From Akkermansiaceae bacterium (GTDB lineage: Bacteria; Verrucomicrobiota; Verrucomicrobiia; Verrucomicrobiales; Akkermansiaceae): DNA of 33,193 nucleotides. Below are positions 2,160 through 4,027 of this stretch, in pieces (positions within the stretch are counted from its first letter, which is position 1; each line of letters begins with the position of its first letter). The stretch is taken from the NCBI GenBank assembly GCA_903908495.1, contig CAIVSK010000059.1, positions 1 through 33,193 of the forward strand, written 5' to 3'. The notes under the pieces are model-generated. The model was not told the DNA's origin. It saw nothing but the letters and a program-made list of their open reading frames with translations, and searched no databases. Both the position numbers and the translations under genes were made by a program.

Positions 2160-3479
2160 ATGTCACTCGTCACTCAAGTGCGCAACGCCGGCGTCGTCGG
2201 AGCTGGCGGCGGCGGCTTTCCCGCTCACATCAAGCTGGTCGCCAAGGCCGACACCGTGATTGCCAACGGCGCGGAATGCGAACCTCTTCTCCACAAGGAT
2301 GCCGCCGTGCTCCAACACCGCGCCGCCGAAGTGGTGCGCGGCATCCTCCTGTGTGCCGACGCAGTGGGCGCCGCCGACGTGGTCATCGCCATCAAGGCCA
2401 AGAAAAAACACGCGGTGGCCGCCGTTGAGGCCGCCTGTGCCGGCACCCGGGTGCGGGTCCATTTGTTGGATGACTACTACCCGGCCGGTGATGAATACGA
2501 CTTGGTCCACTCGGTCACCGGTCGGTTGATTCCGCCCGCCGGGCTGCCGATCCACGTGGGAGTGGTGGTGCAAAACGTGGAGACGCTGGCCAATATCGCC
2601 GCCGCCGCCGCCGGCCGGCCGGTGATTCGCAAGACTCTAACCATCGCCGGAGCGGTGCGCGAGCCGGCCACTTTCGAGGTGCCGCTGGGCATTTCGCTGC
2701 GCGAGTGCATTGCCGCAGCCGGCGGTGCCACCGTCGCGGATCCGGTGCTCAACCTCGGCGGCATGATGATGGGCGAAACCACCACCGATCTCGACCGGCC
2801 GGTGACCAAGACCACCGCCGGAGTCATCGTGTTGCCGCGCGATCATCACGTGATGGAGCGCAAGCTCAAGCCTGCGCAGTTGCAGGCCGCCATCGGCAAG
2901 TCCGCCTGCGACCAGTGCCGCTATTGCACCGAGTTTTGCCCGCGCTTCCTGTTGGGTTACGCGGTGGAACCCCACCAGGTGATGCGCTCGCTGGGCTTCA
3001 CCGCCACCGGCTCTGAACGCTTCAGTGAATGGGCCGGCCTGTGCTGCTCGTGCGGTTTGTGCACCCTTTATGCCTGCCCCGAGCAACTCTATCCAAAGGA
3101 AGCCTGCGACGACTCGAAAGCCGTGCTGCGCGCCAAGGGCTGGAAATGGACCGGTGCCACCAGCGTCGAGGTCCACCCGATGCACGACGGCCGCCGCGTG
3201 CCCGTCAAGAGTCTGATGAAACGTCTCGGCATCGCGGACTACGACCATCCAGCCCCGCTGCGGGAGGGCGTCCTAACAACCAGTCGCGCCGTGCTGCCAC
3301 TCAAACAACACGCCGGCCCGCCGGCGCTGGCCAAAGTCACCGTCGGCCAAACCGTCGCCGCCGGCCAAGTGCTGGCCGAGCCCGCGCCCGATGCCCTGGG
3401 AGCCATCCTGCACGCGCCTTTCGCCGCCACCGTCGCGGCAGTCACCGACAGCACCATTATCCTGACCCTTTTATCATGA
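2160..3479 (+). CDS. pduS: PduS-like microcompartment electron-transfer protein (RnfC/SLBB/2x[4Fe-4S])
   Basis: This 439-residue protein matches the layout and length (about 450) of PduS, the flavin and iron-sulfur protein that recycles cofactors in metabolic microcompartments such as the propanediol-utilisation organelle. The N-terminus has the Complex I 51-kDa/RnfC-like glycine-rich segment (VGAGGGGFPAH, 13-23) and the NGAECEPLL motif. An SLBB-type domain follows near 160-195. Two cysteine clusters bind [4Fe-4S] centres: CDQCRYCTEFCP, and CCSCGLCTLYACP about 45 residues later. A C-terminal barrel-sandwich domain ends the protein. In Salmonella, PduS reduces cobalamin for diol dehydratase and binds PduT; here the electron acceptor is unknown. 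The stop overlaps the pduT start (ATGA), so the two are coupled. No aldehyde dehydrogenase, phosphotransacylase or dehydratase gene is in the window. The symbol is by similarity, not by operon context. Confidence 0.85.
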   Translation: MSLVTQVRNAGVVGAGGGGFPAHIKLVAKADTVIANGAECEPLLHKDAAVLQHRAAEVVRGILLCADAVGAADVVIAIKAKKKHAVAAVEAACAGTRVRVHLLDDYYPAGDEYDLVHSVTGRLIPPAGLPIHVGVVVQNVETLANIAAAAAGRPVIRKTLTIAGAVREPATFEVPLGISLRECIAAAGGATVADPVLNLGGMMMGETTTDLDRPVTKTTAGVIVLPRDHHVMERKLKPAQLQAAIGKSACDQCRYCTEFCPRFLLGYAVEPHQVMRSLGFTATGSERFSEWAGLCCSCGLCTLYACPEQLYPKEACDDSKAVLRAKGWKWTGATSVEVHPMHDGRRVPVKSLMKRLGIADYDHPAPLREGVLTTSRAVLPLKQHAGPPALAKVTVGQTVAAGQVLAEPAPDALGAILHAPFAATVAAVTDSTIILTLLS

Positions 3480-4027
3480 ACGACCGCGCCATTGGACTCA
3501 TCGAACTCACCAGCATCGCCGCCGGCTTTCTGGTTGCCGACACCATGCTCAAGGCGTCGAACGTGAAGCTGCTGCTATCGCGCTCGATTTGCTCCGGCAA
3601 GTACATGGTCCTCATCGGTGGCGACGTCGCGGCGGTCGGGGCCGCCGTGCACGCCGGTTGCACCGCCGCCAAGGGCTGCCTCATCGATCAATTCGTCATT
3701 CCCAGTGTCCACCCCGACGTGTTCGCGGCGCTCGCCCGCTCACGCCCGGTCGAGCCCACCGGGGCGCTCGGCATTCTCGAATCGTTCAACGTCGCCAACC
3801 TGATTGAAGCGGCCGACACCGCGGTCAAGGCCGCCAATGTCACGTTGTTGGAAATCCGTCTGGCCATGGCCCTCGGCGGCAAGGCCTTCGCCACTTTCAC
3901 CGGCGATGTGTCATCGGTGCAAGCCGCCGTCGATGCCGGCCGCGCGGTCATCGCCGGTGCCGGCTTGCTGGTCAACGCGGTGGTCATTGCCCGCCCCCAC
4001 CCGGACGTCTATCGCGAGCTGATCTAG
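3476..4027 (+). CDS. pduT: PduT-like tandem-BMC shell protein with Fe-S cysteine
   Basis: The 183-residue product contains two BMC shell domains in tandem, at about 1-90 (starting MNDRAIGLIELTS) and 95-183 (starting GALGILESF). This is the BMC-T arrangement that forms pseudohexameric trimers in bacterial microcompartment shells. It matches PduT closely: the SICSGK segment corresponds to the ICPGK loop of PduT, whose single cysteine (Cys38 in Salmonella) from each of three subunits ligates a [4Fe-4S] cluster at the trimer pore. The second domain keeps the NVTL and RPHPD signatures. The ATG overlaps the pduS stop by 4 nt. PduT and PduS are known partners that pass electrons across the shell, so this pair is a plausible electron conduit. 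The start MNDRAIG is the canonical family start. Confidence 0.9.
   Translation: MNDRAIGLIELTSIAAGFLVADTMLKASNVKLLLSRSICSGKYMVLIGGDVAAVGAAVHAGCTAAKGCLIDQFVIPSVHPDVFAALARSRPVEPTGALGILESFNVANLIEAADTAVKAANVTLLEIRLAMALGGKAFATFTGDVSSVQAAVDAGRAVIAGAGLLVNAVVIARPHPDVYRELI

What the first reader, a model, noticed from the sequence alone, without database searches (positions are those of the whole stretch)
2160..4027. Isolated pduS-pduT pair: a shell-embedded electron conduit with no visible microcompartment locus
Seen: a PduS-like protein with RnfC-like, SLBB and two Fe-S motifs is followed, with a 4-nt ATGA overlap, by a tandem-BMC protein that keeps the PduT Fe-S cysteine (SICSGK). No other shell proteins or signature enzymes are within 33 kb. 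Known: PduS and PduT interact in the Salmonella Pdu organelle. Inference: this is a satellite locus supplying redox exchange to a microcompartment encoded elsewhere, possibly the PVC-type fucose/rhamnose organelle, or a stand-alone redox device.
Basis: partly seen in the sequence, partly recalled or inferred. Interest (0 to 1): 0.65.

Follow-up and report, generated by a model that had tools for sequence, protein, structure and literature searches.

The report
Plug-in electron outlet for sugar organelle
Two neighbouring genes, stored away from the rest of their system, probably give a bacterium's protein-shelled sugar-digesting organelle an iron-sulphur outlet for electrons, an accessory that related bacteria carry inside the organelle's own gene cluster.

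Summary
The pair is real: pduS (2160-3479) and pduT (3476-4027) overlap by ATGA and keep every cofactor motif I checked. The window is one whole contig of a Verrucomicrobiota draft genome. Contig C150 of the same genome carries a complete PVM-type (fucose/rhamnose) microcompartment locus that lacks any tandem-BMC gene, so the pair is a satellite, not an orphan.

In the order, 17 of 386 genomes have the pair and all 17 also have PVM-type genes; 56 more have BMC genes without the pair. In 4 of the 17, and in many loci outside the order, the pair lies in or beside the PVM cluster, behind the DeoR regulator or the aldolase. It has changed between in-cluster and satellite positions at least nine times on the tree.

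Most likely PduS oxidises NADH made inside the shell and PduT passes the electrons out; this step is inferred from Pdu biochemistry. Pair-bearing genomes are enriched for an oxygen-sensitive glycyl-radical enzyme (11 of 17 against 1 of 56), hinting at anoxic use, but phylogeny-corrected tests are too weak to prove it and another anaerobe marker shows no link. I found no paper describing PduS/PduT in PVM organelles, within the limits stated.

The parts
2160..3479 (+). pduS-like gene: FMN/NADH-binding, SLBB, two-cluster Fe-S and RnfC_N domains, 439 aa
   Evidence: below the NCBIfam cut-offs
2199..2216 (+). GxGxxG glycine motif (residues 14-19), proposed NADH site
   Evidence: sequence; motif named for C. 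freundii PduS in PMC2982820 (passage)
2907..2939 (+). first [4Fe-4S] motif C250xxC253xxC256xxxC260
   Evidence: same spacing as C264-C274 of C. freundii PduS; invariant in 17 of 17 rows, window included
3042..3077 (+). second [4Fe-4S] motif C295xxC298xxC301xxxxC306
   Evidence: same spacing as C309-C320 of C. freundii PduS; invariant in 17 of 17 rows
3476..3479 (+). ATGA overlap of pduS stop and pduT start
   Evidence: sequence
3476..4027 (+). pduT-like gene: tandem-BMC shell protein, 183 aa
   Evidence: model pLDDT 90.5, TM-score 0.94 to 3PAC; below the NCBIfam cut-off
3590..3592 (+). codon of Cys39, proposed pore ligand of the [4Fe-4S] cluster
   Evidence: aligns with the cysteine of 3PAC; invariant in 16 of 16 rows

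Best explanation
The pair is a detached accessory module of the PVM (Planctomycetes-Verrucomicrobia) fucose/rhamnose microcompartment encoded on contig C150 of the same genome. PduT is a tandem-BMC tile that inserts into that shell and holds a [4Fe-4S] cluster in its pore. PduS docks on its inner face, oxidises the NADH that the CoA-acylating lactaldehyde dehydrogenase makes inside the shell, and passes electrons through FMN and two [4Fe-4S] clusters to PduT and on to a cytosolic acceptor. Lumen NAD+ is thereby regained without having to reduce half of the lactaldehyde to 1,2-propanediol. SHOWN here: gene identity and motifs, co-occurrence with PVM loci, in-cluster placement in relatives, repeated change of position. 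INFERRED from Pdu biochemistry (PMC2982820): docking, NADH oxidation, outward flow. UNKNOWN: the acceptor, and expression.
For: Complete PVM locus without a tandem-BMC gene on C150. Pair in 17 of 386 genomes of the order, all 17 with PVM-type genes, against 73 of 386 with any BMC domain. Pair in or beside the PVM cluster in G270, G365, G383 and G315 and in 34 of the 84 non-reference rows of the tree (21 behind DeoR, 11 behind the aldolase, 2 probable). 29 of 29 satellite-type genomes outside the survey have BMC-P. C. freundii PduS is reduced by NADH and co-purifies with PduT, whose cluster is at +99 mV (PMC2982820, passages).
Against: No expression, localisation or biochemistry. NCBIfam cut-offs not reached. 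56 genomes of the order have BMC genes without the pair, so it is dispensable. A lactate/malate dehydrogenase that could recycle NAD+ coexists with the pair in G315, G252, L187, L193 and L201. Only 2.16 kb is visible left of the pair, so a distance of about 7.5 kb or more to C150's locus cannot be excluded for this genome itself. No operator-like site before the window's own pduS.
Confidence: 0.68

Rival explanations
1. The pair serves the PVM organelle, but PduS is the lumen reductase that turns lactaldehyde into 1,2-propanediol, as was proposed for the clostridial fucose/rhamnose organelle; PduT is an anchor or an electron inlet.
For: Proposed for the PduS-like protein of C. phytofermentans (PMC3557285, passages); dehydrogenases behind the aldolase are rarer in pair genomes, 2 of 15 against 23 of 47.
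Against: The fold and domains are those of RnfC and NuoF, with no alcohol dehydrogenase domain; the counts lose significance once kinship is considered.
Confidence: 0.12
2. The pair feeds electrons to something else in the lumen or cell, for instance a corrin or a glycyl-radical activase, and its link to the PVM shell is structural.
For: C. freundii PduS is a corrin reductase (PMC2982820); PduS as electron donor for an activase is proposed for GRM organelles (PMC6325248, passages); a glycyl-radical enzyme is enriched in pair genomes, 11 of 17 against 1 of 56.
Against: No B12-dependent diol dehydratase found in 17 of 17 genomes, although the control genomes did not ring either, so this is inconclusive. 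In the window's genome the glycyl-radical enzyme is a predicted trans-4-hydroxyproline dehydratase with its own activase on another contig, C260, with no BMC match. 6 of 17 pair genomes lack it.
Confidence: 0.12
3. Stand-alone redox device, or a decaying remnant of a lost organelle.
For: No BMC neighbours in the window; flanks differ between relatives.
Against: All 17 pair genomes of the order have PVM-type genes; frames and motifs are intact and PduT is 89-97% identical in the six nearest relatives; in-cluster in other relatives.
Confidence: 0.05

Closest known systems
PduS/PduT of the Pdu (1,2-propanediol) microcompartment
   Same: Domain set, cysteine spacing, gene order and tight or overlapping coupling; PduT fold 44% identical to 3PAC
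   Different: Separate, distant clade from three Pdu references; no Pdu-type diol dehydratase found (inconclusive); serves a PVM organelle and is encoded away from it
GRM5 fucose/rhamnose organelle of anaerobes (C. phytofermentans)
   Same: Fuculose/rhamnulose-phosphate aldolase organelle that carries PduS/PduT; all 57 GRM5 loci do (PMC6325248; PMC3557285)
   Different: There the pair lies in the main locus beside a glycyl-radical diol dehydratase; C150 has none
PVM organelle of Planctomycetes and Verrucomicrobia
   Same: DeoR, PduL, acetate kinase, AldDH, class II aldolase, BMC-H and BMC-P triplet on C150 (PMC4207490 and PMC8857213, passages)
   Different: Published PVM descriptions seen here name no tandem-BMC protein and no PduS; C150 lacks the lactate/malate dehydrogenase named for PVM
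EUT-module satellite loci of HO/SPU organelles
   Same: Shell tile plus enzymes away from the main locus as a functional extension (PMC8217296, passages)
   Different: Here the extension is redox, not entry and processing of another substrate

Membership tests
BMC satellite locus (PMC4207490, PMC8217296) | Insufficient shell complement: only PF00936 or only PF03319 genes | tested here: met
   only PduT on C59
BMC satellite locus (PMC4207490, PMC8217296) | At least one main BMC locus elsewhere in the genome | tested here: met
   C150
BMC satellite locus (PMC4207490, PMC8217296) | Distal from the main locus | tested here: inconclusive
   different contigs in this draft genome; shown outright for G252, about 290 kb on one contig
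PduS | Four-domain set (51K, SLBB, Fer4_17, RnfC_N) and two cysteine motifs of fixed spacing | tested here: met
PduS | FMN, two [4Fe-4S], NADH-dependent reduction, corrin reduction | not testable with these tools
   needs protein
PduT | Tandem BMC domains with the pore cysteine | tested here: met
PduT | NCBIfam TIGR02526 curated cut-off | tested here: not met
   120.4 of 250.3 bits; hence PduT-like
PVM organelle (C150) | Class II aldolase, AldDH, PduL, acetate kinase, DeoR with BMC-H and BMC-P | tested here: met
PVM organelle (C150) | Lactate/malate dehydrogenase in the locus | tested here: not met
   none within 6.1 kb after the aldolase; also absent behind the aldolase in 24 of 47 evaluable pair-less loci
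PVM organelle (C150) | Growth on fucose or rhamnose through the organelle | not testable with these tools
   sugar isomerase and kinase genes of this genome were not searched
Pdu organelle | B12-dependent diol dehydratase | tested here: inconclusive
   0 of 17 genomes, but the family rang in no control genome either

The most novel reading that the evidence does not exclude
PduS-PduT is a portable two-gene redox plug-in that has been attached to, detached from and exchanged between unlike PVM organelles many times in Verrucomicrobiota. It turns a closed, dismutating organelle (half of the lactaldehyde given up as 1,2-propanediol) into one that is electrically connected to the cytosol, chiefly in lineages that live without oxygen, where its clusters survive.
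Probability: 0.35. Interest if true: 0.72.

Novelty: new variant of a known kind. Interest (0 to 1): 0.5.

Why it matters
How a sealed organelle regains NAD+ without wasting substrate is an open question. Here close relatives have the same organelle with, without, or with a relocated electron outlet, so the outlet's effect could be tested on one background. It also extends PduS/PduT beyond the Pdu and GRM organelles to the fucose/rhamnose organelle that is widespread in environmental Verrucomicrobiota.

Tried and rejected
Dehydrogenase exchange. I asked whether the pair replaces the lactate/malate dehydrogenase behind the aldolase. Counts: 2 of 15 pair genomes against 23 of 47 pair-less ones (one of the 47, G025, comes and is not among the 386). 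The script counted 22 because it misread G277; Fisher p 0.03 on its counts. Nine genomes, two of them with the pair, were not evaluable, and four of the 56 pair-less genomes (G256, G282, G313, G387) were not fetched because the contig was too short. With independent pairs on the AldDH tree it is not significant. Kept only as a hint.

Shared regulation. A TTGGGAATTTTTGG-like site lies between DeoR and PduL in main loci. Of 13 satellite pduS upstreams, 3 (G018, G026, G252) exceed the 95th percentile of 129 control upstreams, but the group test gives p 0.13 and the window's own copy scores below the control median. Not claimed.

Anaerobe markers. PF02901 looked at first like pyruvate formate-lyase: 11 of 17 against 7 of 56 (Fisher 5.6e-5). 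NCBIfam showed trans-4-hydroxyproline dehydratase in G000 and in the ten others scanned, one of which is pair-less G277; G029, not scanned, is 94% identical to G000's. The six other pair-less hits are only 26-27% identical and were set apart after the fact, which gives 11 of 17 against 1 of 56. NrdD shows no association: 1 of 17 against 6 of 56. Genome size differs (median 5.1 against 3.5 Mb); among genomes of 4.4 Mb or more PF02901 is still 11 of 14 against 2 of 11. Independent pairs are too few for significance.

Contamination of the draft genome as source of the pair: judged unlikely, since pairs 89-97% alike in PduT occur in six separately assembled relatives.

Full report
WHAT IS THERE. 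The window is contig C59 (33,193 bp, whole as held) of a 6.19 Mb, 432-contig draft genome, 95.7% complete and 4.8% contaminated. The closest named contigs with the pair are titled Akkermansiaceae or Verrucomicrobia. PduS (2160-3479) and PduT (3476-4027) overlap by ATGA. The PduS domain set equals that described for PduS. Its two cysteine motifs have exactly the spacing of the C. freundii enzyme and are invariant in 17 of 17 rows, window included. PduT Cys39 aligns with the cysteine of 3PAC. The AlphaFold model of PduT (pLDDT 90.5) matches 3PAC at TM-score 0.94 and 44% identity. The PduS model is weaker (mean pLDDT 75.2, 96 of 439 residues under 50, chiefly the Fe-S region) and matches RnfC best, then NuoF-type chains. 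NCBIfam cut-offs are reached by neither protein, so 'PduS-like' and 'PduT-like' are the exact words.

THE ORGANELLE IS ELSEWHERE IN THE GENOME. PF00936 and PF03319 searches found, besides PduT, three BMC-H and three BMC-P genes, all on contig C150. Read out (L009), C150 carries DeoR on the minus strand, then PduL, BMC-H, BMC-H, acetate kinase, BMC-H, BMC-P, aldehyde dehydrogenase, BMC-P, BMC-P and class II aldolase: a PVM locus as described in PMC4207490 and, with three BMC-H and three BMC-P, in PMC8857213 (passages). It holds no tandem-BMC gene. After the aldolase come unrelated genes (MgtE-N and Nramp domains) and no lactate/malate dehydrogenase.

CO-OCCURRENCE. Of 386 genomes of the order, 17 encode a full-length PduS (52% identity or more; the next best hit drops to E 7e-35, and the two genomes behind the next two hits have no BMC domain). 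All 17 have PduT beside it and PVM-type shell genes on the same or other contigs. In all, 73 of 386 have BMC domains, so 56 have BMC genes without the pair. In 12 of 17 the pair is on another contig than the main locus; G029 and G361 are on short contigs and prove no distance. In G252 pair and main locus are about 290 kb apart on one contig. Among the seven genus genomes first compared, flanking genes are not shared, apart from G019 with G029 and a VanZ-like gene about 7 kb away in G006.

IN OR BESIDE THE CLUSTER IN RELATIVES. In G270 and G365 the pair directly follows the PVM aldolase; in G383 a rhamnulokinase-like gene (499.8 bits, cut-off 528) lies between; in G315 the pair lies 2.8 kb from DeoR, behind LutA/LutB-like lactate-oxidation genes and before an MFS transporter. 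A scan of the genome collection with the PduT alignment gave 420 relatives, of which the best 80 were kept: 68 titles name Verrucomicrobiota groups, eight say only 'bacterium', two Latescibacterota, two Vicinamibacteria. The scan patterns include the cysteine motif, so these hits cannot show its conservation. In 78 of 80 PduS, whole or cut, lies directly upstream; the other two are cut by contig ends. Two in-cluster layouts recur: DeoR-PduS-PduT divergent from the main operon, and aldolase-(...)-PduS-PduT at its end. In 29 genomes chosen because the fetched stretch (flanks of unequal length) showed no BMC neighbours, 29 of 29 encode BMC-P proteins: three in 26, two in two, five in one.

HISTORY. 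On a quick tree of 84 joined PduS+PduT rows plus three Pdu references (nine duplicate loci and four cut ones left out), the 84 separate from the references. The window's satellites group with four in-cluster loci (L185, L188, L189, L197; 15 rows in all, support 95). Counting 28 satellites and 34 in-cluster rows (20 'unknown' and two doubtful rows not counted), the state changes at least nine times. The pair's tree and the AldDH tree of the order disagree in places: G377's pair groups with L185 and its kin although its AldDH sits among genus members without the pair; G252's pair is in the window's clade although its AldDH is in another group. This points to exchange of the pair as a unit. Long branches make single placements unsure.

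HOW IT WORKS. Published PVM models regain NAD+ inside the shell by reducing one lactaldehyde to 1,2-propanediol for each one oxidised (PMC6620236, section 18 read; the original paper, PMC3993161, is not held). PduS of C. freundii is an NADH-reducible FMN and [4Fe-4S] protein that co-purifies with PduT, whose cluster is at +99 mV (PMC2982820, passages); that favours flow from NADH outward. By analogy the pair would drain lumen NADH to the cytosol. This step is inferred, and the acceptor is unknown.

HINTS THAT DO NOT REACH PROOF. (1) Dehydrogenase behind the aldolase: 2 of 15 pair genomes against 23 of 47 without; Fisher p 0.03 on 22 of 47, not significant with independent pairs, and five cases hold both (G315, G252, L187, L193, L201). 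(2) Operator-like sites before some satellite pduS: group p 0.13, none in the window. (3) A trans-4-hydroxyproline dehydratase-type glycyl-radical enzyme in 11 of 17 pair genomes and 1 of 56 pair-less genomes with BMC genes (Fisher 4e-8; split made after the fact from 7 of 56 PF02901 hits), and no PF02901 hit in 20 genus genomes without BMC; within the genus 10 of 12 against 0 of 25. Of five independent pairs, on average 1.9 go the same way and none the other, too few for significance. NrdD shows no association. The Fe-S clusters are oxygen-labile (PMC2982820 abstract and PMC6325248; the same for glycyl radicals is general knowledge), so a shared anoxic niche is the simplest common cause.

NOVELTY. 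Searches of the held library for PduS/PduT with Verrucomicrobia, Verrucomicrobiota or fucose, and for microcompartment with Planctomycetes, BMC-T and lactaldehyde, listed 1, 0, 15 and 4 papers. I looked into passages of PMC4207490, PMC8217296, PMC8857213, PMC5615132, PMC6325248, PMC2982820, PMC3557285 and PMC6620236, and found no description of PduS/PduT in PVM organelles there; the other listed papers were not opened. PMC8217296 has no mention of PduS or PduT in its main text, but its supplementary locus diagrams were not seen and may show them. Verdict: a new variant of a known kind.

Noticed in passing
L094 8795-9418 (G377), L095 5410-6057 (G252), L233 3652-4299 (G023); second-BMC-T-like hits also listed for G113, G172, G282, G286, G308, G324, G330: A second, different tandem-BMC gene (one weak and one strong BMC domain, about 207-215 aa) away from the PVM locus. 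In G377 and G252 it sits directly beside a DHDPS-family aldolase, in G377 also near an enolase-superfamily dehydratase and an SDR. This could be another satellite that feeds lactaldehyde from a non-phosphorylated fucose route (recalled pathway, untested).
   Followed up: partly
L231 7997-11310 (G252:C4, about 254-257 kb): A glycyl-radical enzyme (316 bits to PFL2-3, cut-off 678) and its activase lie about 3.5 kb after the PVM aldolase and 2.4 kb after the dehydrogenase of G252, with MFS transporters around: a possible PVM/GRM hybrid.
   Followed up: partly
L230 3893-6358 and 2920-3822 (G000:C260): Predicted trans-4-hydroxyproline dehydratase (1155 bits, cut-off 1100) with an activase in the window's genome; the type is enriched in pair-bearing genomes, 11 of 17 against 1 of 56.
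   Followed up: partly
L043 14796-15785 and equivalents: The malate dehydrogenase-like gene behind the PVM aldolase is a near copy (87-91% in the same genus) of another MDH elsewhere in the same genomes, so it looks like a recruited duplicate.
   Followed up: partly
L169 and other Opitutae satellites: A GroEL-like gene lies about 3 kb upstream of pduT in six loci of the neighbour clustering.
   Followed up: no
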